This document shows, piece after piece, positions 4,936-63,739 of a DNA stretch of 64,000 bases (the stretch's first letter is position 1; every line of letters starts with the position of its first letter). Origin of the DNA: Amphiura filiformis (Eukaryota; Echinodermata; Ophiuroidea; Amphilepidida; Amphiuridae). The position numbers and the translations under genes are program-made. Location: NCBI RefSeq assembly GCF_039555335.1, contig NC_092637.1, positions 42,424,990-42,488,989 on the forward strand, written 5' to 3'. The notes under the pieces were generated by a model. That model was given only the letters and a program-made list of their open reading frames with translations, ran no database searches and had not been told where the DNA came from.

Positions 4936-5486
4936 TTTCTTTCATTAGTTGCTATCACTAGTGTACAAAATACAATATAAATGTATAAAATGGTACATGC
5001 GAGGAGAGTCTGATGAACTCTATTCTAGATCCAGTGTCACATCACTATTTATCTATTTCAAATCTTGTGAGATCTCATGCAGAGTAGAGCGTGTTTAGGG
5101 CAAAACATGGCTCGTTGGTGACATAGGTGATAAACATTTTATATTTGGCATACTAAATAACACTTTAATAAAGATTGACTATATAAATGATATGATATAT
5201 ATATGAACAAAACTATCACTAATATAGAAAGTTAGAAAGTTAGAAAGTTAGACATTTAATTAGGGTCAACAGATTATAATTTCCCTCCATTTTAGTTCAA
5301 ATAAAAACATTGCTATAAGTCACCATTTAATTATGTTTCTTAATTATCGTAGAAAAACGATGTTATGACCCCAAATTGTTTAAAGAGATGTTGGACAATT
5401 GTGACCGGTGCCGATATTTCCAAAATTTAGAAAATGATAATTTATAGAAAATAATACGGGCACTACTTTTAGTGTATAACTCCAAT

Positions 5487-8929: not shown

Positions 8930-9250
8930 TTGTTTATTTTATTTAATATTTAATTTTAATTTTAATTTTAATTTTAATTTTAATTTTAATTTTAATTTTA
9001 ATTTTTTTTTAATTTTTTTATTTTTATTTTTATTTTTATTTTTATTTTTATTTATTTATTTATTTATTTATTTTTTTGTCATTTTTTTTTTATTTATATT
9101 TTTTTTTTTCATTTTCATTTTTCAAATTTTTGACTGTGTAATATGTTTATTGAGACACCTATAAAAGGAATAAACCAAAAAGAATTGAATCATTTATTTT
9201 TATTTTTATTTTTATTTTTATTTTTATTTTTATTTTTATTTTTATTTTTC
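8930..9250. repeat. (TTTTA)n / (TTTTAA)n microsatellites
   Basis: Two runs of T-rich pentamers and hexamers (about 8935-9110 and 9193-9247). Each is followed by a copy of GAGACACCTATAAAAGGAAT. The second copy of that block is the likely gene 1 promoter. Confidence 0.9.
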
Positions 9251-9286
9251 GTATTTTTGACTGTGTAATATGTTTAGTGAGACACC

Positions 9287-9324
9287 TATAAAAGGAATAA
9301 GCCAAAAAAAAATTGAATCAGTTC
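9287..9324 (+). promoter_or_regulatory. Core promoter of mucin gene 1 (TATA + Inr)
   Basis: TATAAAAG begins at 9287 and an initiator-like TCAGTTC has its A at 9320, 33 bp downstream. The signal-peptide ATG follows at 9429. The same pair with 32-bp spacing stands before gene 2 (37933/37965). Confidence 0.6.
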
Positions 9325-9428
9325 ATTGCACATGACAGGTCAGGTTGGCATGCTTTATAGGTAGAATTTTGCTACATCATGCATTCGGCTTTGACGAATG
9401 AACCTTGTTCACACTCAACATATACAAA

Positions 9429-9501
9429 ATGGCAATTACTTGTACAATGAAGTATTTCAGCCTTCTGTGGGTTCTATTTATTTGCATTGTTGGAATATTA
9501 G
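9429..9501 (+). CDS. Mucin/FN3 gene 1, exon 1: signal peptide
   Basis: Codes MAITCTMKYFSLLWVLFICI then VGILG: short N-region, long hydrophobic core, small residues at the end, a typical secretory signal. The exon ends in phase 1 at G|GTGAGA. The paralogous exon at 38074-38146 differs at only a few positions. Downstream exons (13646, 16614, 17505, 17836, 18771, 19081, 21960, 22121) all start and end in phase 1, so they splice in frame. The product is inferred to be a secreted or surface mucin-like glycoprotein; I do not recognise a named orthologue. Confidence 0.8.
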
Positions 9502-9718
9502 GTGAGATTCAACTAATATCAACTCGTTAAAAATGTCTATTTCTGTCATTGGAATTACTTTCAAATTTGAAATACATCAAAATAGTTTGGTAATCCTGGA
9601 TTGGAGATTGACATGCGGCGATTCGGATTAAAATTTGGACATTTCTGGCAAACCAGGTTACCATTCGGGGATTCATATCATGCTATTTATACTGACACCG
9701 TAGATTACTTTAATTCGG

Positions 9719-10390
9719 TAAATCTCGTTTATGCTTATGAAAGAGATTGACTGACCTCGGTAAATCTCGTTTATGCTTATGAAAGAGATTGATTGACCTC
9801 GGTAAATCTCGTTTATGCTTATGAAAGAGATTGATTGACCTCGGTAAATCTCGTTTATGCTTATGAAAGAGATTGATTGACCTCGGTAAATCTCGTTTAT
9901 GCTTATGAAAGAGATTGATTGACCTCGGTAAATCTCGTTTATGCTTATGAAAGAGATTGATTGACCTCGGTAAATCTCGTTTATGCTTATGAAAGAGATT
10001 GATTGACCTCGGTAAATCTCGTTTATGCTTATGAAAGAGATTGATTGACCTCAGTAAATCTCGTTTATGCTTATGAAAGAGATTGATTGACCTCGGTAAA
10101 TCTCGTTTATGCTTATGAAAGAGATTGATTGACCTCGGTAAATGTCGTTTATGCTTATGAAAGAGATTGATTGACCTCGGTAAATCTCGTTTATGCTTGT
10201 GGAAGAGATTGATTGACCTCGGTAAATGTCGTTTATGCTTATGAAAGAGATTGATTGACCTCGGTAAATGTCGTTTATGCTTATGAAAGAGATTGATTGA
10301 CCTCGGTAAATCTCGTTTATGCTTATGGAAGAGATTGATTGACCTCGGTAAATCTCGTTTATGCTTATGGAAGAGAATGATTGACCTTTT
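9719..10390. repeat. 42-bp minisatellite in intron 1 of gene 1 (about 16 units)
   Basis: Near-identical 42-bp units, core GGTAAATCTCGTTTATGCTT then ATGAAAGAGATTGATTGACC. Each holds a small inverted repeat (AATCTC ... GAGATT). Because 42 is divisible by three, the minus strand stays open with a 14-residue repeat. That frame has no other sign of coding and sits in the intron of a plus-strand gene. Confidence 0.95.
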
Positions 10391-10732
10391 GAATTCAGCG
10401 CACTTCTGTTTTGTTATAAATTGACTAACATGATTTGACACACGTACAGTGATTATTTTATGGTAATCTCAAATCGGTAAAGGACTAGTAAGGATTTGAA
10501 AGGATTTGAAAGGACAAGAGAATAGTAACTTAAAGGACTTAGGAAGAACTGTGTTAACTATGTTCAGAAATAGAATTAAATGTTTGGAAACATTGCCTTT
10601 TTAGTTTGAGGATAGGATCCTGGGCTCATAACCGGAAACTGTCCCCTCCTAGGAAATTTTGGTGAGTCTATAATTGGAAGCCTCACCCATATGGGAATTG
10701 AAATCAGGTTGTCTGCAAAAATGTTGACCCTG

Positions 10733-10925
10733 GGTTAAACGGTGAGTGCGCTATTCTCAAAATGTCTGCCAAACTGCCATGGTGGCATTTTAATAGCAAT
10801 TTGAACTTTTGACGTCATTGTTAGATTATTCTATTTTATCTTATTTGCAAATGCGGTGTAATGTAAGGGGGAAATATTTCGGTTGTGATCCCAGGGCCTA
10901 AGACAATAGAGGCGACTTCATATCG
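10733..10925. repeat. Direct repeat left of an inverted block
   Basis: This ~193-bp segment (GGGTTAAACGGTGAGTGCGC to GACTTCATATCG) recurs at 12507-12706, with the single ancestral equivalent at 39421-39616. The two copies bracket an inverted block (10926-12506), so the duplication arose with that rearrangement. Confidence 0.85.
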
Positions 10926-13369: not shown

Positions 13370-13614
13370 CTGAGCGCAAGAAGACCGTATGTCCACTTGG
13401 CCCCTCAACGTGTATACACTAAAGTTTTGTATAGTTTCGTATAGTTTGGTAATGTTTTGTACATGTTCAGGGGCCAAAATAAATCTTTCACAACCTTTCA
13501 TGATGTTTTCACCCTGGAACATGTATTAAACATTATAAATCCTAAGAAACTAAACGTAACGTTAGTGCATACATGTTGAGGGGCCAAGTGGACTTACGGT
13601 CTTCTTGCGCTCAG
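13370..13614. mobile_element. 245-bp foldback MITE beside a splice acceptor
   Basis: Arms of about 50 bp start CTGAGCGCAAGAAGACCGTA and end in the complement, enclosing ATGTTCAGGGGCC. Gene 2 lacks it at the same place (40031-40045). It ends about 30 bp before the acceptor of the mucin exon at 13646. Confidence 0.8.
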
Positions 13615-13645
13615 GTCTTCACTTATATCTTTTTCTCGTTTACAG

Positions 13646-13990
13646 GTGCTCCAACTACCCAACCCGTATTAACAACCGAAGATAATGGAACCCAACCAAC
13701 ATCTACTACTTCACTCAGTCTAACTAATTCAACAACACATCATGAATATGCCACTACTGTCAGTTCTGATGAATCAACTACAGGAGAAGAGACAACACAG
13801 CATGAGTATACCACTACTGTCAGTTCTGATGAATCAACTACAGGAGAAGAGACAACACAGCATGAGTATACCACTACTTTCAGTTCTGATGAATTAACTA
13901 CAGGAGAAGGGACAACCCTGCCTGAATCCACCAGTACTGAATCTACAACTGTGAAAGTGTCATCAACTGTTCCATACACAACCTTAACAT
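13646..13990 (+). CDS. Mucin/FN3 gene 1, exon 2: Thr/Ser-rich repeats
   Basis: 115 codons, phase 1 to phase 1, with acceptor TTTACAG and donor T|GTAAGA. After GAPTTQPVLTTEDNGTQPTS it has imperfect ~20-residue repeats of the form YTTTVSSDESTTGEETTQHE. Almost half of residues are Thr or Ser, as in mucin domains that carry O-glycans. The gene 2 counterpart (40063-40548) has more repeats, so the number varies between paralogues. Confidence 0.82.
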
Positions 13991-14339
13991 GTAAGAAAGT
14001 AATATAATTGATTAGAAGTGTAACCATGGTAACGGTACTGTTTGAATTGAGGCTGAATTACATGTTAAATAACAAGGGTATAAAACATACACATTATGAA
14101 TATATTAATTAGACATTGAGAATAACAATTATTCAGCACTACGGAAGTTACATTTTAATACTTCATTACACGCTAGGTTATATACCACTAATTATGTATT
14201 ACACGGGTTTCAATGGGAAAGTGGCTAATTTCGGGTGGAATTTTCTCATATTCAGAACTCTCACAGTTAAATTGCACTAATATCAGGTGAAACTATATGA
14301 TTTAGATGCCAAATTATTAAAACACTCAACATAGGTTGA

Positions 14340-17579: not shown

Positions 17580-17835
17580 GTATGTAGTATAATTAATGCT
17601 GTTTCTTCAATCATTGTCTTTCACCAGAAATATGCAGGAATTATACATCAGAAAAAAATAGGAATTTTACATCAGAAAAAAATACTTGCATATCTTTAAT
17701 GGCTCTTGTTGTCATACCGCATTTATGTTCTTTCCATAACCTAGAAGATATCATTGTAAGTTCTAAATGTTCAAAATAGCATTGTTTATATGTAATTATC
17801 AACATTCTAAAAGAGTATCTACTTTGTATATACAG

Positions 17836-18438
17836 TCATTGGGTCAACAACAGAAACACTGTATACCACTCTGCCACGACTTACTACTCCTATCACTACT
17901 GTTGAATCAACTACAGCAGAGGATGTAACCCAGCCAAAATCTACCAATTCTGTCAGTACTGCTGAATTAACTACAGGAGGAGAGGTAACCCACCCTGAAT
18001 CTACCACTCCTATTAGTCCTGTAAAAGCGACTACAGGGATAGAGGTAACGCTGCCTGAATTCACTACTCCTCTCAGTCCTCTCAGTCCTGCTGAATCAAC
18101 TACAGGAGAAGATGTAACGCAGCCTGAATCCACCACTCCTCTCAGACCTGATGAATCAACTACAAGAGTAGATATCGATGTAACCCAGCCTGAATCCACC
18201 ACTCCTGTTAGTCCTGCGGAATCAACTACAGGAGAAGGGGTAACGCAGGCAGAATCTTCTACTCCTTCCAGTCCTGTGGAAGCAACTACAGGAGAAGAGG
18301 TACCCCAGCCTGAATCTACCACTCCTCTCAGTCCTGCTGAATCAACCAAGATTCAATCTATCACTGCTGCCAGTGCAACTGCCTCAACTTCACAAGAGGA
18401 AGTGACTAATGACGTAACTTCTACATCAGGAACGCAAG
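17836..18438 (+). CDS. Mucin/FN3 gene 1, exon 5: mucin repeat exon
   Basis: 201 codons, phase 1/1, open throughout, acceptor TATATACAG and donor G|GTATAA. Opens IGSTTETLYTTLPRLTTPIT and runs about eight ~20-residue repeats of form EVTQPESTTPLSPAESTTGE. It closes with an Ala/Thr-rich stretch (ASATASTSQEEVTNDVTSTS). The long open frame on the opposite strand is only a reflection of the repeat. Confidence 0.8.
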
Positions 18439-18770
18439 GTATAAGTAAGACCTTGTTACTCATTATGTCAATTTTTGAGCAACTATTGCTTTAATAAGAC
18501 TGGTAGAGATTTGATGCTGGCGACTTCTGATCGATAATCGCTTTTCTGATCAAACAAAGGATAAGACATGAAAAGCGAATTATGTAGTGAGTATTCATAG
18601 AAACCTGTACTTGCATATCTTGTTGATATTGTCTATTGATACTTTGTTCGCATGTTGCCGTTTTGTTTTTAATCTAACCTTCACAAAATCTTCAGAATTA
18701 TGATCTGAAATAAGTAACATTGATCAAGTTTTAAATCAATAGCATACCTTGTATTGCTGTTTATCGACAG

Positions 18771-18845: not shown

Positions 18846-19080
18846 GTATGTAGCACAACTAATGCTGCTGTTTCTTCAGTCATTTTCTTTAACCAGAAAT
18901 ATGTAGGAAGTATACCTTAGAAAAAGTACTTGCATAGCTTGAATGGCTCTTGTTGTCATACCACTTTGATATTATTTCAATAACCTGGAAGAAATCCTTG
19001 TCGTACGTTCTAAAATGTTCAAAATAACATTCTTATGTAATTATCAACATTCAAATATAATATCTACTTTGTATATACAG

Positions 19081-19620
19081 TCATTGGGTCAACAACAGAA
19101 TCACTGACCACTCTGCCACGACTTACTACTCCTATCAGTCCTGTTGCATCAACTACTGGAGAAGAGGTAACCCAGCCAAAATCTACAAATTCTGTCAGTA
19201 CTGCTGAGTCAACTACAGGAGAAGAGAAACCTCAACCTGAATCTACCAGTCATGCCAGTCATACTGAATTAACTAGTCCGGCAGAATCAACTACAGGAGA
19301 AGAGGTGCCCCAGCCTGAATCCACCATTCCTGATAGTCCGGCAGAATCAACTACAGGAGAAGAAGTAACGCAGACTGAATCTACCACTCCTATTAGTCCT
19401 GCTGAATCAACAGGAGAAGAGGTAACACAGCCTGAATCCACCACTCCTATTAGTCCTGCAGAATCTACTACAGGAGAAGAAGTAACGCAGACAGAATTTA
19501 CCACTTCCCCCAGTCCTGCTGAATCAACCAGGCCTGAATATATCACTACTGCCAGTGTAACTGCACCAACTTCACAAGAAGGCACGACTGATGAATTAAC
19601 TTCTGCATCAGCAACGCCAG
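19081..19620 (+). CDS. Mucin/FN3 gene 1, exon 7: mucin repeat exon, second copy
   Basis: 180 codons, phase 1/1, again opening IGSTTES and ending ASATPG at G|GTATAA. It holds seven or so EEVTQPESTTPISPAESTTG-type repeats, then a Thr/Ala tail. Same module as exon 5 and as 45643-47499, with different repeat numbers. Confidence 0.8.
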
Positions 19621-19759
19621 GTATAACTATCAAGACCTGTTATTCTTTATGTCATTTTCTATCTATATTATATGTATCATCTGGAAATGCGACTCCTGTG
19701 ATCAGGGTTTTTACAGTGTGTAGGTATTAGTCATTGGGGTTGGGGCATAGGATGGTGTG

Positions 19760-22097: not shown

Positions 22098-22120
22098 GTG
22101 ATATTTTATTTCTTACTCAG

Positions 22121-29521: not shown

Positions 29522-29880
29522 GCAAAGGCATCTGTGCGCTTTACACGATAAAAACACTGATAGTAATTACAAAAGAAAACTAGCTAAAAGTATTAAAGCA
29601 ATTACAATCTACAGTAAACACAAGAAAGAATATTAAACACAACCACCGAAAAAATAATGTAAGTCGGCGAAAATCGGCAACTGATTGCACGTGAAACATA
29701 TAATGTATAGACCTACCCTATACTGTGTCTTCCAAGCACAATAATGTTATGATTGCAGACGAGATCTGCTCCACTTTTTAATTCCTTGATTTTTGGCTTC
29801 TGAACAAAAGAGAAACCAAAACTTATTCATATCATTCCATTTTGTGTAGGCCTACCCATGTTTACAAATAGGATTCCCAC
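29522..29880. other. Intergenic, nothing recognised
   Basis: AT-rich sequence between the TTAA-type element and the first recognisable LINE codons. It may include the LINE's 5' leader. Confidence 0.4.
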
Positions 29881-30207
29881 ATTTACATGACTAGTGACAT
29901 GAACAAACACTTCTCAATAGCTTCCATGAATTGTCGAGGTTTAGCCAATGTAAAAAAACGTAGAGATGTACTTCACTTTTTAAGGAAGAAAAACCATTCT
30001 TTATATTGTCTACAGGACACTCATTTTGTAAAAGATGTTGAAAATATAATTCGTTCTGAATGGGGATTTGATCGCTATTTTAGTTCATATAAAAGCAACG
30101 CAAGGGGCGTGGCAATATTATTCAATAATAATTTTGAATATAAAGTTAATCAGTTTAAGTGCGATACAAAAGGAAATATGCTTGTAATTGATATTGTAAT
30201 AAATAAT

Positions 30208-30828
30208 TGAATATATGAATACAAAAACCACCTAAGTCCATACTTAAACCAAATTGAGTTAAGCATGGGAAAGTGTTCCTTTACATAGGCCTGTCATATG
30301 TATGAAAGAACAACTCAAATTCATCCTCTGTGTCTATTGAGCATGTGAAAAATAGCATGTATGAAAGAATCACCCAATTCCATGATTTGAGTCTTGTAAC
30401 ACATTGATTAAAATCCAGTATGTATAAAAGTCCACTTGTAACACATTCATTGCTAGAGAGTGACTTTTGAAAAAAAATGGGTTTAATAAAGGAAAGTGTG
30501 TGGTTTATATTACATGGCAGAATGCTTATCAACATTATACATACCTGTGCGCTTTATTTTGTATTATCTTACTAGTGGTAATCTCATTCTAACATTGTTG
30601 TCTTTGTATATGATTCAAACAACCACCTAAGTCCAAAATTTAAAATGAACCCCACGAAGTCCCTGAAATGCTAATCGTCATACCTAATACAGGTTAATCC
30701 ACTCATTTGCACGTAAAACTTACCATATTGACCAGGTAAATCTAACTGAAGGAATTAAAATGATACACAGGTTTTTCTCTCAAAATCACTTCCCATGGAC
30801 TTAGGTGGCTTTTGTATTCATGTATTCA
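30208..30828. mobile_element. 621-bp inverted-terminal DNA element, copy B (inside the LINE)
   Basis: Same family as 5487-6109 in reverse orientation, with ends TGAATATATGAATACAAAA and the complement. AT is duplicated at 30206-30207 and 30829-30830. Removing it with one AT restores the endonuclease phrase VIDIVINN-CNITLINIYGP, so it is younger than the LINE. Confidence 0.9.
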
Positions 30829-33800
30829 ATTGCAATATAACATTGATTAATATATATGGTCCCAATAACGATGAACCAGAGTTCTATGATAATTTATACA
30901 ATGTAATTAATGAGTTTGATAACGAACATATAATTATATGCGGCGATTGGAATTTGGTAATGAATGAGGCACTTGATACTTACAATTATGTTAGAGCTAA
31001 CAATCCAAATGCAAAAAAGAGAGTGGTAGAACTTTGCAATTCATTGAATTTGACGGATGTATGGCGCATAAATAATCCAGATTTACGCAAATATACATGG
31101 CGGCAACATGATACTTTGAAACAAGCCCGTCTTGATTTTTTTTAAATATCGTCAGAATTAAATTCCAAACTATCTAAATGTGATATCAAACCAGGTTATC
31201 GTACGGACCATTCATTAGTCGATATACATCTAGATTTCAATGACATTGAGCGTGGCAAAGGCTACTGGAAGTTTAATAACTCTCTTTTAAAGGATACAGA
31301 ATATGTTAATTTGGTGAAGAAAACTATAAAAGAAGTGGTAGAGAAGTATGCGGCACCTCCATATATTTTGTCAAATTTAAACACAATCCATCCTAGAGAT
31401 ATCCAGTTTATAATCAATGATCAACTGTTTTTTGAAATGATTTTATTAGAAATTCGTGCTAAAACTATTTCTTACTCAGCTTTCAAAAAGAAAGATTTGG
31501 GAAGATTGGAGAGAGAACTTGAATCTGAGATAACAGAATTATTTACAAAGGTCGCCTCGGGTGACCACACTTTAAATGTACAATTGAATATGAAGCAAAA
31601 CGATCTTGAGAATCTGCGTAAAGATAAAATGAAGGGGGTCATGATAAGATCTAAAACTCGCTGGTTTGAGCTTGGTGAAAAACCGTCTAAATATTTTTTG
31701 AACATGGAAAAACGTAATTTAGTTAACAAAACAATAAATAGAATAGTTCGTACAGATGGTTCTGTTTTAACCAACTCAAAGGATATTCTTTCTGAGGCAA
31801 GAAATTTTTATAAAGATTTATATTCGGAATCTGAAACTGATGATAATGCTGATGTTGACTCTGTTTTTGCAAATATAAATACTCCAATCTTGTCAAACGC
31901 CCAGCGCGATAGTCTTGAGGGTCCTATAACATATAAGGAACTTTTAAATGCTCTTAAAAACAGCAAGAATGATAAATCACCTGGATCTGATGGATTTAGT
32001 TCGGAATTTTATAAAGTATTTTTCAATGATCTTGTATGGTATTTGCTTCGTTCGTTAAATTATGCGTATGAAAATGGACAACTTTCTGTAACTCAAAAAT
32101 ATGGTATAATCACTTTATTACCCAAAGGAGATAAACCACGTCAATTTTTGAAGAACTGGCGGCCTATATCCCTCCTAAATGTATCTTATAAACTCGCCTC
32201 GTCGTGCATCGCAACGAGATTAAAATCCTGCTTGTCCGATATTATACACGAACACCAAAAAGGTTTTGTCACGGGTCGATATATTGGAGAAAACATACGT
32301 TTAATGTACGACCTGATGAGTTTGGCAGAGAATAAAAATATTCCTGGCCTTTTTCTCATGATTGATTTCGAAAAGGCCTTCGATTCGGTATCACATACAT
32401 TTATAATGAAAATATTAGATAAATTCAATTTTGGCAATTCGATTAAAAAATGGATTCGTGTTTTTTATAATCAAGCTTCATCATCAGTACTAGTTAATGG
32501 ATTTCTTTCGGAATCTTTTAAGGTGGGTAGAGGATGCAGACAAGGCGACGGACTAAGTCCCTATTTATTCATCCTTTGTGCGGAAGTCCTAGGTATGATG
32601 GTTCGAAAAATCAGAATATTAAAGGTATTAGAATAGGGGATGCAGAATATCGCATATCTCAATATGCTGATGATACTGTTCTTTTTTCTTGATGGCACAG
32701 AGAAGTCAATGAATGAAGCTTTTAAAATCCTCGATTCGTTTGAAAACATGTGTGGTTTACGGGTAAATATAGACAAAACTAATGTTGTGTGGATTGGATC
32801 AAAAAGTGGTAGCAATGAAACAATTTGTGATCATTTGAACGTTAAATGGATTCATAATAATAACTGTTTTAGAGCACTAGGTATTGACTTCACTGTGTCA
32901 CTTGAAAGAATGGTGCAGATTAATTATGTAAAAACAATGGAGTCAATTCATGAATTAATTCACCAATGGTCAAGACGTAATCTTACAGTTCTGGGCCGTG
33001 TAACAATAGTTAAATCACTTATTTTATCTAAGCTTACCTTTCTGATTTTAACTTTGCCTAATCCACAATACGAGTTAATAAAAGATTTAAACCAAATAAT
33101 ATATAAATTTATATGGAAAGGTATTGATAAGGTTACAAGAAATCAAATGATCCAAGATTATGGTCAAGGAGGTGTGAGAATGGTTGATGTCCAGTCATAT
33201 ATACATGCACTAAAAATAACCTGGATTCGTAGAATCATTAAAAATGCGGAGACAGAGTGGGTAAAGCTTTTTCTTCAGACAACAGGTATAAACCGTATCC
33301 AGGACATTGAGGGTGGATCTACTAATATTATGAATTTCATGAATAATAACAATGATAAACCGAATCAATTTTGGAAAGATGTTTTTGGGCATGGTTTAGT
33401 TTTTCTAACTGTCATCAACCAACTACCAGACAGGAGGTACTGAAAAGTTCACTTTGGTACAATGAAAACATTAAAGTGGGTAAACAAAGTTTGTATTACC
33501 AGCATTGGGTTCGTAATGGTGTGATCTTGTAAATGATCTATTAAATGAGAGAGGGGCATTCCTCTTGCTGGAGGATTTTATGCGTATATTTCATGTTCGC
33601 ACAAATTTTGTTGAATACGGTGGTGTAATATTGGCGATCAAAAAGTCGTTTCCAAAATTCTTTGACAAACCTGGTGATACCCTTGTTTATCCCACTATTC
33701 CATTTCACTTTGATGTTCTCTTTAAAGATAAAAAGGGTTCCAGAAGAATATACAATATTCTTGTTTCGAAAAACAATTGTTCGTAAATATGTACAAAAAT

Positions 33801-34349
33801 GGGAAGAAAAGCTTGAAGCTACATTTGATCCTTCAAGATGGAATGTTATTTTTAATACACCCTTCAAATGTACAATAAGTACTAAACTCAGGTGGTTTCA
33901 ATTCAGAATAATTCACAGAATCCTTGGTACAAACGCATTTTTATTTAAAATTGGGATAAAAGATTCCAGTATGTGTACCTTCTGTCTGGAGGAGAGTGAA
34001 ACTTTGATTCATATGTTTTGTGATTGTCATGTGGTTAGGAAATTTTGGGATGATGAAAAGGTGGATCGAAAACAAAGTTAATATAAATCTCTCTTGGAAA
34101 AAAGATAATCTGCTTTTTGGCGTTGGTCCTAGCTATATTGTTTTGGATTTGATTCTAGTTTTATGTAGATTTCATATATATAAAATGAAAATGAAAGAAA
34201 ATAACCCTTCGATCCACATTTTCAAGAAAGAATTGCAAAATCATTATAAATTAGAAAAATATATTTACATATGTAACAATAATATTGGTTTATTTTATAA
34301 AAGATGGGGTATTTTCAATTCACTCTGTAGAGAATAAGATTTAGACCCT

Positions 34350-37356: not shown

Positions 37357-37704
37357 TTTATTCTCATTCTTATTCAGTTTTAATGTAATTTTTGCGAGAA
37401 AAACTGCCCTTTTTCAGAAAAAAATAAAGTTACTTTTGTGAGGACATCCCCGTTGTTTTAAATGAACGAAACCATCACGAACATCTATGCCGCCGAATCG
37501 CGTTCTTAGTTCTCGCACGTGTATTACGCGAACTCATTATCGCGCGATCATTGAGGAGCAACAAGCGTGCCGCCGTTGCGTGGCGGCGCACGTCCTGACT
37601 AATATCACTATCAACTATTGTGAGATATTATACACCAGAAAACCAATCAAATTACGTGAATTCTTTACAAGACGCACTCATTGAATAAGAATCTGTTATA
37701 TTTT

Positions 37705-37779
37705 GTTTATTTTATTTTACATTTAATTTTTATTTTTATTTTATATTTCATTTTTATTTTTATTTTTATTTTATTTTTA

Positions 37780-37810
<31 letters not shown>

Positions 37811-37890
37811 TATTTATTTTTATTATTTATTTATTTTTGTCATTTTTTTATTTTTTTATTTCTATTTTTATTTTTATTTTCATTTTCATT
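37705..37890. repeat. (TTTTTA)n-type microsatellite upstream of gene 2
   Basis: T-rich tracts equivalent to 8930-9250, ending shortly before the gene 2 promoter. The open frame across it is low-complexity and not a gene. Confidence 0.9.
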
Positions 37891-37932
37891 TTTCGAATTT
37901 TTGCTGTGTAATATGTTTATTGAGGTACTACC

Positions 37933-37969
37933 TATAAAAGGAATAAGCCAAAAAGAATTGAATCAGTTC
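37933..37969 (+). promoter_or_regulatory. Core promoter of mucin gene 2 (TATA + Inr)
   Basis: TATAAAAG at 37933 and TCAGTTC with its A at 37965, 32 bp apart, matching gene 1. The ATG is at 38074. Confidence 0.6.
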
Positions 37970-38073
37970 ATTGCACATGACAGGTCAGTTGGGCATGCTT
38001 TATAGGTAGAGTTTTGCTACATCATGCATTCGGCTTTGACTAATGAACCTTGTTCACACTCAACATATACAAA

Positions 38074-38146
38074 ATGGCAATTACTTGTACAATGAAGTAT
38101 TTCAGCCTTATGTGGGTTCTATTGATTTGCATTGTTGCAATATCAG
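38074..38146 (+). CDS. Mucin/FN3 gene 2, exon 1: signal peptide
   Basis: Codes MAITCTMKYFSLMWVLLICI then VAISG, phase 1 at G|GTGAGA. Nearly identical to gene 1's exon and likewise a secretory signal. Downstream exons 40063, 41718, 43852, 44511 and 45643 are all phase 1/1 and join in frame. Confidence 0.8.
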
Positions 38147-38353
38147 GTGAGATTCAGCTAATATCAACTCGTTTCTGTGTATTTCTGTCATTGGAATTAC
38201 TTTCAAATTTGAAATACATCAAAATAGTTTGGTAATCCTGGATTAGAGATTGACATGCGGCGATTCGGATTAAAATTTGGACATTTCTGGCAGAACAGGT
38301 TACCATTCGGTGATTCATATCATGATATTTATACTGACACCGTAGATTACTTT

Positions 38354-39077
38354 AATTCGGTAAATCTCGTTTATGCTTATGAAAGAGATTGATTGACCTC
38401 GGTAAATCTCGTTTATGCTTATGAAAGAGATTGATTGACCTCGGTAAATCTCGTTTATGCTTATGAAAGAGATTGATTGACCTCGGTAAATCTCGTTTAT
38501 GCTTATGAAAGAGATTGATTGACCTCGGTAAATCTCGTTTATGCTTATGAAAGAGATTGGTTGACCTCGGTAAATCTCGTTTATGCATATGAAAAAGATT
38601 TATTGACCTCGGTAAATCTCGTTTATGCTTATGAAAGAGATTGATTGACCTCGGTAAATCTCGTTTATGCTTATGAAAGAGATTGATTGACTTCGGTAAA
38701 TCTCGTTTATGCTTATGAAAGAGATTGATTGACCTCGGTAAATCTCATTTATGCTTATGAAAGAGATTGATTGACCTCGGTAAATCTCGTTTATGCTTAT
38801 GAAAGAGATTGATTGACCTCGGTAAATCTCGTTTATGCTTATGAAAGAGATTGATTGACCTCGGTAAATCTCGTTTATGCTTATGAAAGAGATTGATTGA
38901 CCTCGGTAAATCTCGTTTATGCTTATGAAAGAGATTGATTGACCTCGGTAAATGTCGTTTATGCTTATGAAAGAGATTGATTGACCTCGGTAAATCTCGT
39001 TTATGCTTATGGAAGAGATTGATTGACCTCGGTAAATCTTTTTTCGTTTATGCTTATGGAAGAGAATGATTGACCTT
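38354..39077. repeat. 42-bp minisatellite in intron 1 of gene 2 (about 17 units)
   Basis: Same 42-bp unit as 9719-10390, with one irregular unit near 39038. It stays open on the minus strand for the same arithmetic reason. Confidence 0.95.
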
Positions 39078-40062
39078 TTGAATTCAGCGCACTTCTGTTT
39101 TGTTATAAATTGACTAACATGATTTGACACACGTACAGTGATTATTTTATGGTAATCTTAAATCGGTAAAGGACAAGTAAGGATTTGAAAGGATTTGAAA
39201 GGACAAGAGAATAGTAACTTAAAGGACTTAGGAAGAACTGTGTTAACTATGTTCAGAAATAGAATTAAATGTTTGGAAACATTGCCTTTTTTAGTTTGAG
39301 GATAGGATCCTGGGCTCATAACCGGAAACTGTCCCCTCCTAGAAAATTTTGGTTAGTCTATAATTGGAAGCCTCACCCATATGGGAATTGAAATCAGGTT
39401 GTCTGCAAAAATGTTGACCCTGGGTTAAACGGTGAGTGCGCTATTCTCAAAATGTCTGCCAAACTGCCATAATTGCATTTTAATAGCAATTTGAACTTTT
39501 GACGTCATTGTTAGATTATTCTATTTTATCTTATTTGCAAATGTGGTGTAATTTAAGGGGAAATATTTCGGTTGTGATCCCAGGGCCTAAGACAATAGAG
39601 GCGACTTCATATCGCTGGTCTGATGATAAGCATGGTTATGCAAACCGAGGGTAGTCCTTGTCATACTGAGTTGGTGTTTGGTTGTTATTTGGGTACACGC
39701 TTTGCTTCCGCTTTATATTTCTTTTGTTACACGCTCTGCCAATCCGTTTATACGTACCTTGTTCTTTTTAGTACTAATGACTAGCTAGGTCATGTTTCAT
39801 CTATTCAATAACACAATATCAAAATAATTACCAACATTCCGGGCCAACATTCTCCCTATGACAGCATTATGACATGCTCCACTCGGCTCCCTGGCAACAT
39901 TAATGCCGGGCATTATGTTTGCCTAGAAAGTCGTACAAACATGCGATTTTTATTGGTTTGGGGAACAAATGAAAGAAAGTCAAATTACCATTAATTCGAA
40001 AAGCCCTTAACCTCAAAGTGTAAAATATCAGATGTTCACTTTTATCTTTTTCTCGTTTACAG

Positions 40063-40548
40063 GTGCTCCAACTACCCAACCCGTATTAACAACTGAAGAT
40101 AATGGAACCCAACCAACGTCTACTACTTCACTCAGTCTAACTAATTCCACAACACATCATGAATATGCCACTACTGTCAGTTTTGATGAATTAACTACAG
40201 GAGAAGAGACTACACAGCATGAATCTACCACTACTGTCAGTTCTTATGAATTAACTACAGGAGAAGAGACTACACAGCATGAATCTACCACTACTACCAC
40301 TACTGTCAGTTCTGATGAATCAACTACAGGAGAAGAGACAACACAGCATGAATCTACCACTACTGTCAGTTCTGATGAATCAACAACAGGAGAAGAGACA
40401 ACACAGCATGAGTATACCACTACTTTCAGTTCTGATGAATTAACTACAGGACAAGGGACAACCCAGCCTGAATCCACCAGTACTGACAGTCCTGATGAAT
40501 CTACAACTGTGGAAGTGTCATCAACTGTTCCATACACAACCTTAACAT
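40063..40548 (+). CDS. Mucin/FN3 gene 2, exon 2: Thr/Ser-rich repeats
   Basis: 162 codons, phase 1/1. Same start (GAPTTQPVLTTEDNGTQPTS) and end as the gene 1 exon but with about two to three more ~20-residue repeats (STTTVSSDESTTGEETTQHE), one bearing an extra TTT insertion. Mucin-type. Confidence 0.82.
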
Positions 40549-41239
40549 GTAAGAAAGTAATATAATTGATTAGAATGGTAACGGTACTGTTTGAATTGAG
40601 GCTGAATTACATGTTAAATAACAAGGGTAAAAACATACACATTATGAATATATTAATTAGACATTGAGAATAACAATTATTCAGCACCACTAATTATGTA
40701 TGTATTACTCGGGTTTCAATGGGAAAATGCCTAATTTCGGGTGGAATTTTCTCATATTCAGAACTCTCACAGTGTAGTTCCACTAATATCAGGTGAAACT
40801 ATATGATTTAGATGCCAAATGATCAAAAACTCAACATAGGTTGACCTGAGACTTTTCTTGTTTTAACGCACTGAACCGTAAACACCTTAAAATGGCAGTG
40901 CGCCCTCGAAGCTGAAAGTTACAATATGGTAGGGCGAATATTTTACTAAAAACCGAAGCCGTGCGTGTGAATTTTGGTACTATTACAACAAAAATGTCAT
41001 ATAATGAGAGAAAATATACAATTTTGAAGCATCAAACCCTAAAAAGTACTTTTTTGACTATATAACTTGATCAATTTCAGCGATTTTAATGCAGTCTTTT
41101 TAGATGCCATGCAAACAAACAGTTACTCGTCCTATTTCCATGTATCGCCCAGACCTATTAAACCTATAGGGATATTATCGAACAACCAGCCTGCATAGGC
41201 AGGGGAAATAATATACGTTATAGTATTTCTAAGAGTACG

Positions 41240-44797: not shown

Positions 44798-45638
44798 ATT
44801 ATTTGTGTATCATATCGTCGGGTGCATCACATACTGGTCTATCTTGATTTTTTGACTTTTTTGATAAAATTGGTATATAGTTCTTTTTTACGAAGCTCTT
44901 CCAATACAACAAATTACAGACCTCAATTTTTCCTAGATAATTAGTAATAAAATGTTAAATTTAAACTATCTCTGATTTTTTCAAAATACGTTTTTCACAT
45001 ACTGATCTATCTCGAAAAAACACGCATTTATAGAAAATCTCAATTGAAAATCTTCGTATTAAGTTTACCTTTCTATAATTTAATTAGACTATGGATTTTC
45101 ATGAAAGTGGTTTTAAATTAAAGCATATACTTAACAGATTTATTTAAGTGGAATCTTTTTTTATATTTACGTATGTAATATTACTTAAAACTATACTAAA
45201 GTTGTAGTTCTGTATGTGAAATCGTTAATTTCCCGATATCGTATTGAAAGTGCATTACATACTGGTCTATCTCGAGATAGACCAGTATGTGATGCGTCAA
45301 AAATCACGTCATTGTTCGCGAAATCGAGCCCCCAAGATAGACCAGTATGAAATGCACTTTAAATACGATATCAGGAAATTAACTATTTCACATACAGAAC
45401 TACAACTTTAGTGTAGTTTTAAGCAATATTGAAAAGGTAAATATAATTCAAGATTCCACTTAAATAAATCTGTTAAGTATATACTTTAATTTAAAACCAC
45501 TTTCATTAAAGTCCATAGTCTAAATAAATTATGGAAAGGTTAACTTAATACGAAGATTTTCAATTGTGATTTTCTCGAAATGCGTGTTTTTCGAGATAGA
45601 CCAGTATGTGATGCGTCCGACGATATTTATTTTTCATG
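44798..45638. mobile_element. ~840-bp foldback at the acceptor of the big mucin exon
   Basis: Arms of about 275 bp (44985-45270 and 45345-45612) surround a perfect 34-bp palindrome at 45257-45290. CATACTGGTCTATCTCGA or its complement occurs six times. In the gene 1 modules TTTGTATATACAG|TCATTGGG is continuous; here the element lies between TATATA and the CAG. Confidence 0.85.
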
Positions 45639-45642
45639 ACAG

Positions 45643-47499
45643 TCATTGGGTCAACAACAGAAACACTGACCACTTTGCCACATCTTACTACCCTTGTTAG
45701 TCCTGTAGAATCAACTACTGGAGAAGAGGTAACCCAGTTTAAATATACCACTTCTGTTAGTACTGCTGAATTCACTACAGGAGGAAAGACACCAGCGCCT
45801 GAATCTACCACTTCTGTCAGTCCTGCTGAATTAACCACAGGACAAAACACAGCACAGCCTGAATCTACGACTCCTGTTAGTCATGCTGATTTAACTACAG
45901 GAGGAGAGACAGCACAGCCTGAATCTACCATTACTGACAGTCATTCTGAATTAACTACAGTAGAAGTGACAACACAGCCTGAATCTACCAATCCTGTTAG
46001 TAATACTAAATTAACTACAGGAGAAAAGACAACACCACCTGAATCTACCACTCCGGTTAGTTCTGCTGATTTAACTACGGGAGGAAAGACACCACAGCCT
46101 GAATCTACCATTACTGACAGACATTCTGAATTAACTACAGTAGGAGTGACAACACAGCCTGAATCTACCACTTCTGCCAGTCCTGCTGAATTAACCACAG
46201 GACAAAACACAGCACAGCCTGAATCTACCACTTCTGTCAGTCCTGTTGAAATAACCACAGGAGGAGAGACAACACAGCCTGAATCTACCACTCCTGTTAC
46301 TGTTAGTACTGCTGAATTAACTACAGGAGGAGAGACAGCACAACCTGAATCTACCACTTCTGCCAGTCCTGTTGAAATAACCACAGGAGGAGAGACAACA
46401 CAGCCTGAATCTACCACTCCTGTTACTGTTAGTACTGCTGAATTAACTACAGGAGGAGAGACAGCAACGCCTGAATCTACCACTTCTGCCAGTCCTGCTG
46501 AATTAACCACAGGAGGAGAGACAACACAGCCTGAATCTACCACTTCTGTCAGTCCTGTTGAAATAACCACAGGAGGAGAGACAACACAGCCTGAATCTAC
46601 CACTCCTGTTACTGTTAGTACTGCTGAATTAACTACAGGAGGAGAGACAGCACAACCTGAATCTACCACTTTTGTCAGTCCTGTTGAATTAACCACAGGA
46701 GGAGAGACAACACAGCCTGAATCTACCACTTCTGTCAGTCCTGTTGAAATAACCACAGGAGGAGAGACAACACAGCCTGAATCTACCACTCCTGTTACTG
46801 TTAGTACTGCTGAATTAACTACAGGAGGAGAGACAGCACAACCTGAATCTACCACTTCTGTCAGTCCTGTTGAATTAACCACAGGAGGAGAGACAACACA
46901 GCCTGAATCTACCACTTCTGTCAGTCCTGTTGAAATAACCACAGGAGGAGAGACAACACAGCCTGAATCTACCACTCCTGTTACTGTTAGTCCTGCTGAA
47001 TTAACCACAGGACAAAACACAGCACAGCCTGAATCTACCACTTCTGTCAGTCCTGCTGAATTAACCACAGGACAAAACACATCACAGCCTGAATCTATGA
47101 CTCCTGTTGGTCCTGCTGATTTAACTACAGGAGGTAAGACACCACAGCCTGAATCTACCATTACTGACAGTCATTCTGAATTAACTACAGTAGGAGTGAC
47201 AACACCGCCTGAATCTACCAATCCTGTTAGTCCTGATGAATCAACTACAGGAGAAGAATCCACAACTCCTGTTAGTCCTGCTGAATCAACTGCAGGAGAA
47301 GAGGTAACCCAGCCTGTATCCGCCACTCCAGTTAGTCCTGCTAGACCAACTAAAGGAGAAGAGGTAACACAGCCTGAATCTACCACACTTCTCAGTCCTG
47401 CTGAATCAACCCAGCCTGAATCTGTCACGGCTACCAGTGCAGCTGCACCAACTACACGAGAAGTGACTGACGGCTTGACTTCTGCATTAACAACGCCAG
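45643..47499 (+). CDS. Mucin/FN3 gene 2, exon 6: expanded mucin repeat exon
   Basis: 619 codons, phase 1/1, open throughout. Starts IGSTTETLTTLPHLTTLVSP like exons 17836 and 19081 and ends at G|GTATAA. It has about 28 repeats of a 20-residue unit (ELTTGGETTQPESTTSVSPV), partly arranged in a 62-residue higher-order unit that includes TPVTVSTAELTTGG. Rich in Thr, Ser and Pro and free of Cys, as expected of a heavily O-glycosylated extended mucin domain. Over three times the length of the gene 1 exons. The opposite-strand frame of 406 codons is a reflection of the repeat. Confidence 0.85.
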
Positions 47500-48039
47500 G
47501 TATAATTATTAAGACTTTGCTATTTTTCATGTTATTTTCTGGTCAAGGATATAGGATGATCTAAGAAGACACCTTTGTATTATGTGTATCTTCTGCATTA
47601 GCAAATTATTAGAAGTAATAAATCGAACAGAACGGGCTGTGATGTCTCCCTATCATCTCAGCTTATTACGTAGCACATGCTGTATTTTCAATCATTTTCT
47701 TTCACCAAAATATGCAGAAAGTAAAACAATTAAAGTATAGTTTTAAAGTATACCTACGAAACTAGTACTAGCATATCTTTGACGGCTCTTATGATCAGGG
47801 TTTTTACAGGAGTTTACAGGATTTAAAGGGATGTGTGTGGGGGATGGAGTGGGATGTGTGTGTTTAACATAATTTTTCGATAATCGCTTTTCCGATGAAG
47901 CAATGGATAAGAAAGTAAAAAGAGACACGAAAAGCAAAAAAGACACGAAAAGCGTCTAAAGGGTGTGTGTGGAGGGATGGGTGGGATGGGATGTGTGTGT
48001 GTTAAATATAATATTTGGATAATCGCTTTTCTGATCCAG

Positions 48040-57968: not shown

Positions 57969-58140
57969 AAAAATATGGCTAAAACTAATTCATTCAGGCG
58001 CATTACTTCATTTCGTGAATCATATCCATATACTTCCAAACTCTAATTATTCTTAAGACCGATGAGAAACTGCAAGTTTGGGAAAATCACAAAATATCTA
58101 TTTCATTTAGGTATATATTTTAACACTGTGTAAAATAGTG

Positions 58141-58412
58141 CACGTCCGAGACGGGCTACTGAGTCATCGGACGGGCTATTTTCCTAACCAGCCAATCCAA
58201 TGAGTCTGTCCGCACGTCCGAGACGGGCTACTGAGTTATCGGGCGGGCTATTTTCCTAACCAGCCAATCCAATGAGTCTGTCCGCACGTCCGAGACGGGC
58301 TACTGTGTCATCGGACGGGCTATTTTCCTAACCAGCCAATCCAATAAGTCTGTCCGCACGTCCGAGACGGGCTACTGAGTCATCGGGCGGGCTATTTTCC
58401 TAACCAGCTGAC
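58141..58412. repeat. 72-bp minisatellite (about 3.8 units) downstream of the HYR gene stop
   Basis: Units begin CACGTCCGAGACGGGCTACT at about 58141, 58213, 58285 and 58357, with one to three differences each. It ends about 25 bp from the stop codon at 58437 on the minus strand, so it would lie in the 3' UTR. Confidence 0.95.
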
Positions 58413-58436: not shown

Positions 58437-58632
58437 TTAAAAATCCTCGTAGCAGTTCGGAATCGCGGTGTCGACTTCCGTGTTTTCATAACCCCTGTTA
58501 TCTAGATTATCAAGAGCTACGTCATATCCTGTAACCTTTTGTTGTTGGTGTGGTGCATCGTTTAAATCTTGCGCAGATTTAGGCGGAAACTCAATTGAAT
58601 GAATGGAGAATGTTCGTTCTGACTTCATTTTC
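58437..58632 (-). CDS. HYR receptor-like gene, terminal exon: cytoplasmic tail
   Basis: Acceptor GCTTTGCAG; the exon enters in phase 2 and codes 64 residues, starting KMKSERTFSIHSIEFPPKSA and ending GYENTEVDTAIPNCYEDF before a stop. The first residues are basic, continuing the CCKR stop-transfer of the membrane exon. Three Tyr (GYDVALDN, GYENTEV, CYEDF) lie in acidic settings typical of phosphotyrosine sites. Phase matches the donor at 60093 (AAAAG|GTATGG). The tail function is inference. Confidence 0.75.
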
Positions 58633-59652: not shown

Positions 59653-60058
59653 AATTCTCGCTATTCGCAATAGGGGCGCCGCCAGCGGTTTGCGATGTAA
59701 TCGTGATGTATCATGGGGAAAAGGTCGACATCCAAGTCCGCGCAATACGAATATTACCATGCTATTACATAGGAACACGTGACAATATTTTTTAGTTCGT
59801 CAATATAACGGTAATACACGCAAATCGATAGAGAAAAAAATAATTGTGCACATTTCAAATCACATTATTAAGTATTATTGAGTATCGATTCGCGTGTAAC
59901 ACCTTTATTTTGATAAACTAAAAAATATTGTCACGTGTTCCTATGTAATAGCATGGTAATATTCGTATTGCGCGGACTTGGATGTCGACCTTTTCCCATG
60001 ATACATCACGATTACATCGCAAACCGCTGGCGGCGCCCCTATTGCGAATAGCGAGAAT
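59653..60058. mobile_element. ~406-bp foldback in the last HYR intron
   Basis: Arms of about 140 bp start AATTCTCGCTATTCGCAATA and end in the complement, with an AT-rich centre of ~120 bp. Ends about 35 bp from the membrane-exon donor (60093). Confidence 0.88.
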
Positions 60059-60092
60059 TGGATCAGGTACCCAAAAATCAAAAGTTCCATAC

Positions 60093-60448
60093 CTTTTGCA
60101 ACACATGATAGCTACTGCTGCAATGATAATGGCAATACTTCAGGGGCTATTTTAACGTGCCTCACTGTCACGATCGTGCAATGAGATAAAAGTGTTGATG
60201 AAGTAGAGTGCGTTTCAAAAATAAAAAAATTGACATTTTTACCTGAATGTGACCGTAAGAAAGGTTCTACCATTGTCTACTGTCTACTATTAAAGCATAT
60301 CTACACGGATGGTTAATTGTCACTGTACGAATATTTTATCTCGACACGTACGTGACAGTGAGGCACGTTAAAATAGCCCCTGCAATACTTCCACCTCCAA
60401 CAGCTGCAGCGATGATGATGATGGTGGTAGTACTGATTGGTGAGCTTT
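60093..60448 (-). CDS. HYR receptor-like gene, transmembrane exon interrupted by a MITE
   Basis: Acceptor CAATTTTTCAG, then SSPISTTTIIIIAAAVGGGS up to the insertion. Beyond the MITE the other side reads IIIAAVAIMCCKR to donor AG|GTATGG. Excluding the MITE (242 bp) and one TSD copy (8 bp), the exon is 106 nt with phases 1 and 2, fitting its neighbours. The result is one continuous hydrophobic helix followed by a basic anchor. As the sequence stands, translation enters the MITE (AGAILTCLTVTYVSR) and stops. Host gene exon; the break is the element only. Confidence 0.8.
60141..60382. mobile_element. 242-bp hAT-like MITE inside a coding exon
   Basis: Ends CAGGGGCTATTTTAACGTGC and the complement (about 31 bp). 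A perfect 8-bp duplication CAATACTT lies at 60133-60140 and 60383-60390. CAGGG-type ends with 8-bp duplications are the hAT hallmark. No coding capacity. Confidence 0.92.
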
Positions 60449-61275: not shown

Positions 61276-61521
61276 CTATCAATATTACAATAACATTGAA
61301 GTTACAGACAGCTATATTATTAGAAGGATCCCAAGCGGAGTACGTCACTGTGGTGTTACCTACGAAGAACACGTCATTTGGACTATGGGTTGAGTTTATT
61401 CTTAACACATCTTCAGAATTGTCAGTCGGCACGGGCGGTATCCATTCTACTGGAATATGTGCTGTACTTTCTGCGTTACTTGTGATGTCTTGAGGACATT
61501 CCAAAACTGGTGCTTCGATAT
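61276..61521 (-). CDS. HYR receptor-like gene, HYR domain exon 2
   Basis: 82 codons, phase 1/1, acceptor AATATGTAG and donor ATAG|GTAAGT. Reads LECPQDITSNAESTAHIPVE, W-I-P-P-V-P-T-D, FFVGNTTVTYSAWDPSNNIA then VCNFNVIVI. CP near the start, the W..P core, G-T-x-V-T-Y, D-x-x-N-x-A-x-C-x-F-x-V are the HYR (hyalin repeat) signature, an Ig-like extracellular fold. Joins the membrane exon in frame. Confidence 0.88.
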
Positions 61522-62519: not shown

Positions 62520-62632
62520 ACTTTTTTTCTTCAAAATTCATGATCGCATTCCGAAATGAGTCACTTGTCGGTAAATCATGTATCGTATCCTTAAATTCAA
62601 TATGTGTGGTAAGAAACCGTAATATGTGACAT

Positions 62633-63279
62633 GATCTGGTCCATGGAGGCCAAAGGCGGCAAATTTGAAATGGAGATAAAGGCATAAATATAAAGAAAAA
62701 ACAATAAAATACATAAGAAACCTTTAAAACCAAGTATGCTACCGGTATAATGAAAGACAAAGATAAAAAGACCAGTTTGCGTCTGACGTCATCTGTCAAT
62801 CAAACTTCGAGCACGGTGTTTGTTTACAAGTGTCGTGATGATGACTTGCTGAACGCGGATTTATAACCGGGCGCCTTATTGTTAATTTTGCACCTTTCGA
62901 CATGCAAACCATCTCAAAAGTTAGGTCTTTATAGTAGGAAACTTTCTTAACCGAAGGTACCAAATGCCTAGAAAAGCTGCTTTTCGCCTTGTAAAAGTAC
63001 GTAATTTTCGCCATCCTCGCCATTCACTGCTATTCCTTTTCTCCGATCGGCACCAGCCAGACGAATTGACCTTCCTTATACACGCTATTAGCCAATCAAG
63101 GATCGTAGAGAATTTGATTGACAGTGACGTCAGACGCAAACTAGTCTTTTTATCTTTGTCTTTCATTATATACCTTTGATGCTTCCAGTTTTATGATAGC
63201 CTTATGTTTGTTTTGTAGAAGGTAATTATAGTAACTCAATTTTCACAAAAAGTCTCCTTTGGCCTCCACGGACCAGATC
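62633..63279. mobile_element. 647-bp inverted-repeat element in the HYR intron
   Basis: Ends GATCTGGTCCATGGAGGCCA and the complement. A second inverted block (about 62750-62805 against 63110-63175, GACAAAGATAAAAAGAC-AGT, TTGCGTCTGACGTCA) lies inside. An internal frame (MPRKAAFRLVKVRNFRHPRH) has no recognised family. Confidence 0.75.
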
Positions 63280-63449
63280 GTGCTATCGGGTATCATGTTC
63301 TATGCGTCATAATATGAAATCGGCTGCAACAATACCAGAACAGAATCTCCATAGCTCTGTCACAAATACCGGCAATAAATCACATAATGAAATTTCCCGT
63401 CTTTATCCTATAATATTTTTTAGAGAAGTATCATAATTATTTTCCTTAC

Positions 63450-63683
63450 CAATGACATTAACCTCAAAGTAGCAACTTGCTCGTATGCTCTCATCTTCAT
63501 CCTCGACCCAACATGTTACGTTCGTGGTCCCAAATGGGAAGGCATCGCCTGACATATAATTACATGTCACGTTCAAAATTCCTGTTGTATCATTGGCTAT
63601 TATATCGGGCCACGTGACTTCAGCAGTAGGCATTCCAGGATCAGTCGGATGGTCAAGATAGTTATCTGGACAGAGCATGTCAA
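63450..63683 (-). CDS. HYR receptor-like gene, HYR domain exon 1
   Basis: 78 codons, phase 1/1, acceptor CCTCATACAG and donor TTG|GTAAGG. Reads DMLCPDNYLDHPTDPGMPTA, EVTWPDIIANDTTGILNVTC, then FPFGTTNVTCWVEDEDES and ASCYFEVNV. Shows the HYR pattern with the usual Cys set. Several N-x-T sequons suit an extracellular domain. Further upstream exons (signal peptide, other domains) must lie beyond the right edge. Confidence 0.88.
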
Positions 63684-63739
63684 CTGTATGAGGAAAATAA
63701 TTTGAATAGGCTTTTACGACGGGAATTCATAACAATTCG

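What the first reader, a model, noticed from the sequence alone, without database searches (positions are those of the whole stretch)
60093..60448. hAT-like MITE inserted into the transmembrane exon of a HYR receptor gene
A 242-bp element with CAGGGG ends and a perfect 8-bp duplication (CAATACTT) splits a membrane-helix exon. Removing it with one TSD copy gives exactly 106 nt with phases 1 and 2. That matches the upstream HYR exon and the downstream tail exon, and the helix IIIIAAAVGGGSIAIIIAAV then reads through. With it in place the protein ends TVTYVSR* within the MITE, dropping the Tyr-containing tail. The perfect TSD suggests a young, possibly polymorphic insertion that turns a receptor into a tail-less form.
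Basis: partly seen in the sequence, partly recalled or inferred. Interest (0 to 1): 0.85.

Follow-up and report, generated by a model that had tools for sequence, protein, structure and literature searches.

The report
Jumping gene splits receptor's membrane exon
A short mobile DNA element of the hAT kind sits inside the exon for the membrane-spanning part of an animal receptor-like gene and, read straight through, cuts off the receptor's inner tail; the insertion is real, but whether the animal makes a tail-less receptor, no receptor, or splices around it cannot be told from this sequence.

Summary
A 242-bp element (60141-60382) with perfect 32-bp inverted repeats sits between perfect copies of CAATACTT, inside an exon at 60448-60093. 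Without the element and one copy the exon is 106 nt, phase 1 to 2. It then joins an HYR exon (Pfam E 4.1e-15) to a tail exon at 58632 and encodes a membrane helix and a three-tyrosine tail. With it, the frame stops at 60338. 'Tail-less receptor' is only partly supported. The inverted repeat does keep the frame hydrophobic, so a short-tailed membrane form is possible. But the stop lies about 245 or 95 nt before the likely junctions, which suggests decay of the mRNA. Two predicted splice paths would keep the tail (a donor inside the repeat, or removal as an intron); their sites are weak to middling, and the first is no better placed than chance. 'Young, possibly polymorphic' is plausible but untested: no source genome, relatives or RNA were available. 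It is an ordinary kind of event, a MITE in a coding exon, in an interesting place.

The parts
60141..60382 (.). hAT-like MITE, 242 bp, perfect 32-bp terminal inverted repeats (60141-60172 and 60351-60382)
   Evidence: strong hairpin as RNA, -95.7 kcal/mol, z -10.8
60133..60140 (.). target-site duplication, copy 1 (CAATACTT)
60383..60390 (.). target-site duplication, copy 2 (CAATACTT)
60093..60448 (-). transmembrane exon with the insert (356 nt; 106 nt without); phase 1 in, phase 2 out
   Evidence: splice sites; frame
61276..61521 (-). upstream HYR exon, 246 nt, phase 1 to 1; acceptor 61521 scores poorly (92% of AG sites score as well or better) and is kept because its phase fits
   Evidence: Pfam PF02494 E 4.1e-15
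58437..58632 (-). tail exon, coding part to the stop; basic juxtamembrane stretch and three tyrosines
60336..60338 (-). in-frame TAA inside the element that ends the straight-through reading
60351..60352 (-). possible donor CAC|GTACGT at the end of the inverted repeat; 97-nt exon in phase with the tail exon
   Evidence: matrix top 4.2%, U1 pairing only top 28.7%
60242..60243 (-). best-scoring donor in the element, CAG|GTAAAA; gives a premature stop
   Evidence: matrix top 1.7%, U1 pairing top 1.0%
60118..60394 (-). possible in-frame intron that removes the element with 27 nt of exon (60395^60117); 79-nt exon, helix nine residues shorter
   Evidence: 12 of 204 GT-AG pairs reach the native tail; this scores best of the 12, fourth of the 204
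63450..63726 (-). further upstream HYR exon of the same gene; donor at 63450, 5' border not defined
   Evidence: Pfam PF02494 E 4.9e-11; donor

Best explanation
A non-autonomous hAT element inserted into the transmembrane exon of a type I membrane protein gene with HYR ectodomains and a tyrosine-bearing tail. Shown from sequence: element, duplication, exon, phases, and the stop inside the element. Inferred: the insertion is recent; on this haplotype most mature transcripts that include the exon carry that stop and lose the cytoplasmic tail; the allele is therefore null or strongly reduced through nonsense-mediated decay; and any protein that is made is anchored by a helix whose second half is encoded by the inverted repeat and which ends almost at once (YVSR), a signalling-dead or decoy-like form.
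For: Perfect 32-bp inverted repeats and 8-bp duplication. Empty-site exon of 106 nt with phases matching both neighbours, helix and tail reading through. Good native splice sites on this exon. Stop at 60338, with the element's best donor (60243, U1 pairing -8.3 kcal/mol against -6.2 for the native donor) and the native donor both downstream of it. The straight reading stays hydrophobic: best 19-residue Kyte-Doolittle mean 2.15 with the insert, 2.58 without.
Against: No RNA, second allele or relative was available; own genome not held. On a recalled biological hydrophobicity scale the inserted form is weak as a membrane helix: best windows of 17, 19 and 21 residues sum to +0.44, +0.41 and -0.27, against -1.61, -1.39 and -1.59 without the insert. 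The intron-removal product scores better than the straight-through one (-2.17, -1.13, -0.89), so its shortened helix is no bar to that rival. Two in-frame splice paths would keep the tail. Nonsense-mediated decay in this organism is assumed.
Confidence: 0.55

Rival explanations
1. The element is tolerated because splicing goes round its stop codon. Either a donor at the end of the inverted repeat (60352) joins the tail exon, so that the repeat codes for the second half of the helix, or the element leaves as a new intron (60395^60117) with a helix nine residues shorter. Either way a tail-bearing receptor is still made.
For: Donor 60352 gives a 97-nt exon in the right phase, with the native tail and the helix IIIIAAAVGGGSIAGAILTCLTVT before KMKSER. 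Pair 60395^60117 gives a 79-nt exon that reaches the native tail; donor 60395 pairs with U1 as well as the native donor (both -6.2), and the shortened helix is still hydrophobic (19-residue Kyte-Doolittle mean 2.33). Introners that recruit both splice sites from the insertion site or neighbouring exon are described (PMC9860276, passages).
Against: Donor 60352 pairs poorly with U1 (-3.4, top 28.7%) and lies at the end of a 32-bp stem. With the element placed at 99 positions of the exon, 33 of 99 in this orientation had an in-phase donor of matrix score 1.5 or more inside the element before the stop (0 of 99 flipped), so the placement is not special. Acceptor 60117 is only top 6.7%. Excision through the GT and AG of the two duplication copies (60389^60137) would leave 105 nt, out of frame (arithmetic on the coordinates).
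Confidence: 0.2
2. The exon or the gene was already out of use, or the exon is optional, so that the insertion has little effect.
For: Nothing in hand shows that the gene is expressed, and its 5' part lies outside the window. The HYR exon acceptor 61521 scores poorly. Other inverted-repeat elements lie close by (59653-60059, 33 bases from the exon; 62630-63282). An AATAAA at 60719, in the intron before the exon, could end transcripts earlier (no control made).
Against: Splice sites and frame are intact on both sides of the insert and in the tail exon; 284 of 5801 sampled 65-codon stretches of this strand (4.9%) are open by chance. Skipping the exon gives an immediate stop (GK*), so it is not a neutral cassette.
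Confidence: 0.17
3. The new hydrophobic C-terminus acts as a lipid-anchor (GPI) signal and turns a transmembrane receptor into a GPI-anchored one.
For: The straight-through product ends in a small-residue region (ESSPISTTT) followed by about 25 mostly hydrophobic residues and SR.
Against: The hydrophobic stretch is long for such a signal and ends in SR; the pattern is recalled and no predictor was run. It also needs the mRNA to escape decay.
Confidence: 0.03

Closest known systems
hAT superfamily MITEs, Buster group (Mar of Drosophila, PMC3517528; Buster2 MITEs, PMC4298943)
   Same: 8-bp duplication; CAGGGG ends (Buster2 CAGGGGTGGCCAACCT); one listed Buster2 MITE is 246 bp; CAATACTT fits the Buster duplication nnnTAnnn
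   Different: The inverted repeats beyond CAGGGG do not match; 32-bp perfect repeats exceed the 5-27 bp quoted for hAT in PMC3517528; no transposase or second copy seen; TA at the centre occurs in 8.5% of window 8-mers; Tip100 also begins CAGGGG
IL18R1-Short, a transposon-derived tail-less decoy receptor of mammals (PMC13232192, a preprint; abstract and passages)
   Same: A mobile element ends the reading of a type I receptor so that the intracellular part is lost
   Different: There an intronic LINE2 gives a polyadenylation signal, both isoforms coexist and function was tested; here the element is inside the coding exon and no product is tested
Introners, mobile elements that become introns (PMC9860276, passages)
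   Same: Inverted repeats, duplication and insertion in a coding exon; in-frame removal is conceivable
   Different: No family of intronic copies could be looked for; the best in-frame path uses exon sites of modest score and deletes nine residues

Membership tests
hAT superfamily MITE | 8-bp target-site duplication | tested here: met
   CAATACTT at 60133-60140 and 60383-60390
hAT superfamily MITE | terminal inverted repeats with hAT-type ends (general CAG-G form recalled) | tested here: met
   CAGGGG ends, 32 bp perfect; the same six bases in Tip100 and Buster2
hAT superfamily MITE | many non-coding copies mobilised by a related transposase | tested here: inconclusive
   One copy in 64 kb; own genome not held; 32- and 20-base end patterns absent from genome contigs, 24-base absent from viral contigs; these collections are not expected to hold the animal
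Buster group of hAT | duplication nnnTAnnn | tested here: met
   CAA-TA-CTT; 8.5% of window 8-mers fit by chance; one site only
Buster group of hAT | Buster-type transposase | not testable with these tools
   no autonomous partner can be looked for without the genome
HYR-domain type I membrane protein | HYR domains | tested here: met
   two exons, PF02494 E 4.1e-15 and 4.9e-11
HYR-domain type I membrane protein | helix followed by basic residues and cytoplasmic tail | tested here: met
   in the empty-site reading only
Introner | spliced out as an intron; family of intronic copies | not testable with these tools
   no RNA, no genome; in-frame path predicted only
TE-derived decoy receptor | stable tail-less protein that dampens signalling | not testable with these tools
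   reading frame only

The most novel reading that the evidence does not exclude
The inverted repeat of a MITE has been taken into a receptor as protein: it codes for the inner half of the membrane helix and brings a donor site in the right phase (60352), so that a full receptor with its tail is made from a part-transposon helix, next to a tail-less form from the same allele when the later donors are used. The element would then be a splicing switch between signalling and decoy forms.
Probability: 0.08. Interest if true: 0.7.

Novelty: new member of a known kind. Interest (0 to 1): 0.36.

Why it matters
If carriers and non-carriers coexist, this is a natural knock-out (or tail-less allele) of an HYR receptor-like gene with a precisely known ancestral state, so tail function could be read from genotype. 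If the element is spliced round, it would be a recent case of a transposon end becoming membrane helix, or of intron birth. As it stands it is a well-defined but ordinary kind of insertion.

Tried and rejected
Other copies of the element in the window: none beyond its own repeats; the remaining BLAST matches are short (11-19 bases), largely A/T-rich, best E 0.042. Bacterial and archaeal genome contigs with the 32-base and the 20-base end: 0 each. Viral contigs with 24 bases: 0; with 17 bases: 2 stretches, neither of which continues as the inverted repeat or has a reversed 10-base partner in the stored stretch, so both were dropped as chance. Viral contigs with the helix-plus-tail protein: 53 stretches matched a short pattern, none was confirmed. 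None of these collections is expected to hold the source animal, which was not identified.

Another helix exon between the HYR and tail exons: 17 open AG..GT stretches of the right phase passed a hydropathy cut. Twelve are this same exon, from its own or upstream AG sites, ending in the element's repeat; five start at 59446 or 60092, score 1.61-1.69 and hold charged or proline breaks.

Exact removal through the GT and AG of the duplication copies was rejected because it leaves 105 nt. AATAAA at 60719 (upstream intron), 59909 and 59604 and ATTAAA at 59442 (downstream intron) make early polyadenylation possible; no control was made.

Paper searches, listings only: HYR receptors in echinoderms (20 of 745 listed, 6 of 6), MITE insertions in coding exons (8 of 8), MITE exonization in receptors (12 of 19 listed), introners (20 of 36), Buster duplication (12 of 12), transposon decoy receptors (11 of 12), CAGGGG ends (2 of 2). 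No listed title or 33 describes this case; that is not proof that none is in print.

Full report
What is there. On the minus strand the window holds the 3' end of a gene with HYR domains. Two readings match Pfam HYR: the exon 61521-61276 (E 4.1e-15) and 63726-63403 (E 4.9e-11; donor at 63450). The exon 61521-61276 runs phase 1 to phase 1. It is followed by an exon at 60448-60093 and a tail exon from 58632 to a stop at 58437. Splice sites were scored with an approximate matrix recalled from general knowledge and ranked against the strand's 3755 GT and 3431 AG sites. Donors 61276 (top 0.2%) and 60093 (top 0.5%) are good, acceptors 60448 (2.6%) and 58632 (2.9%) fair. Acceptor 61521 is poor (92% of AG sites score as well or better) and is kept because its phase fits.

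The insertion. Bases 60141-60382 form a 242-bp element with perfect 32-bp terminal inverted repeats, CAGGGG...CCCCTG, between perfect copies of CAATACTT. It is the only place in the window with perfect arms of at least 14 bp bordered by a perfect 8-bp repeat; ten simulated windows gave none even with 10-bp arms. No further copy lies in the window. As RNA it folds as a hairpin, -95.7 kcal/mol against a mean of -46.6 for 200 shuffles, z -10.8.

The two readings. Without the element and one duplication copy the exon is 106 nt. The protein runs from the HYR domain through ESSPISTTTIIIIAAAVGGGSIAIIIAAVAIMCCKRKMKSER into a tail with three tyrosines that ends NCYEDF. With the element the frame goes ...IIIIAAAVGGGSIAGAILTCLTVTYVSR and stops at 60338. 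One thing it did not say: the inverted repeat keeps the frame hydrophobic, with a best 19-residue Kyte-Doolittle mean of 2.15 against 2.58. On a recalled biological hydrophobicity scale the inserted form is borderline: +0.44, +0.41 and -0.27 for 17, 19 and 21 residues, where the empty form has -1.61, -1.39 and -1.59. In the placement control 53 of 99 positions in this orientation and 55 of 99 flipped have a stretch of mean 1.6 or more before the stop (for late positions the exon's own helix counts), so this is not a special fit.

What it does. If the native donor is used, the stop begins 245 nt before the junction; with the element's own donor at 60243 (CAG|GTAAAA, U1 pairing -8.3 kcal/mol against -6.2 for the native) it begins 95 nt before it. 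By the matrix, however, the native donor scores higher (4.66 against 3.09). Under the usual 50-55 nt rule (established knowledge, not tested for this organism) both would be targets of nonsense-mediated decay. Skipping the exon also stops at once (GK*). Hence the most likely effect is a null or low allele with, at best, some tail-less membrane protein.

Ways round. Of 204 GT-AG pairs at least 60 nt apart within the exon with its insert, 12 reach the native tail. The best of them, 60395^60117, ranks fourth of the 204 by summed score; it removes the element with 27 nt of exon, and its product's helix scores better than the straight-through one (19-residue Kyte-Doolittle mean 2.33). Separately, donor 60352 at the end of the inverted repeat (CAC|GTACGT) gives a 97-nt exon in the right phase, and joined to the tail exon reads IIIIAAAVGGGSIAGAILTCLTVTKMKSER. 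Its matrix score is in the top 4.2% but its U1 pairing only in the top 28.7%. In the control 33 of 99 positions in this orientation (0 of 99 flipped) have an in-phase element donor of score 1.5 or more before the stop, and 24 of 99 have it together with a hydrophobic stretch. Among 45-nt stretches sampled along the strand 334 of 9115 (3.7%) have an in-phase donor of at least 1.55. So the element brings a donor that is uncommon, but its phase here is a one-in-three chance. It is a possibility, not evidence of adaptation.

Age and polymorphism. The perfect duplication, perfect repeats and open frame on both sides fit a recent insertion. By chance 284 of 5801 sampled 65-codon stretches are open, so the tail exon is probably real and not long decayed. 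None of this dates the event. The source genome is not held, and the searches of public collections found no relative. Polymorphism is a guess.

Family. hAT membership rests on the 8-bp duplication and the CAGGGG ends. The same six bases begin Buster2 MITEs (PMC4298943, passages) and Tip100 (PMC12511174, passages). The duplication fits the Buster consensus nnnTAnnn (PMC3517528, passages), which 8.5% of window 8-mers fit by chance. Buster group is likely, not shown. Works-like parallels are IL18R1-Short (PMC13232192, preprint, abstract and passages) for loss of the tail through a transposon, and introners (PMC9860276, passages) for removal as an intron.

Tail. The three tyrosines lie in GYDVAL, GYENTE and CYEDF. 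YENT resembles an SH2 (Grb2-type) site and YEDF a tyrosine sorting motif; both are recalled resemblances, untested.

Noticed in passing
59653-60059: A 407-bp foldback element (arm stretches 94% and 99% complementary) ends 33 bases from the donor of the transmembrane exon; its transcript would form a very long hairpin beside that splice site. No clear target-site duplication (AATT at best, a palindrome).
   Followed up: partly
62630-63282 and 62746-63170: Nested inverted repeats in the intron between two HYR exons, perhaps one or two more non-autonomous transposons; no clear duplication.
   Followed up: partly
58140-58408: Tandem array of a 72-bp unit, 3.7 copies, just past the stop of the tail exon.
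   Followed up: no
13546-14007, 17811-18494, 19041-19730, 40011-40565, 45612-47564 (+ strand): Several Ser/Thr/Pro-rich repeat readings of related sequence, mostly 60-bp units; the longest has no Pfam match above cut-off. Fibronectin type III readings lie at 22102 and 51964 (above cut-off) and 49677 (just below). May be a cluster of duplicated mucin-like genes.
   Followed up: partly
29872-34337 (+ strand): LINE-like retrotransposon pieces; reverse transcriptase domain PF00078 E 7.5e-25 at 31146-32633.
   Followed up: partly
4009-4941 (- strand): UNC-93 family membrane protein exon (PF05978 E 2e-23).
   Followed up: partly
9007-10925 and 37696-39614: A 1.9-kb segment present twice at 91% identity, each with an array of 42-bp units, 16 and 17 copies.
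   Followed up: no
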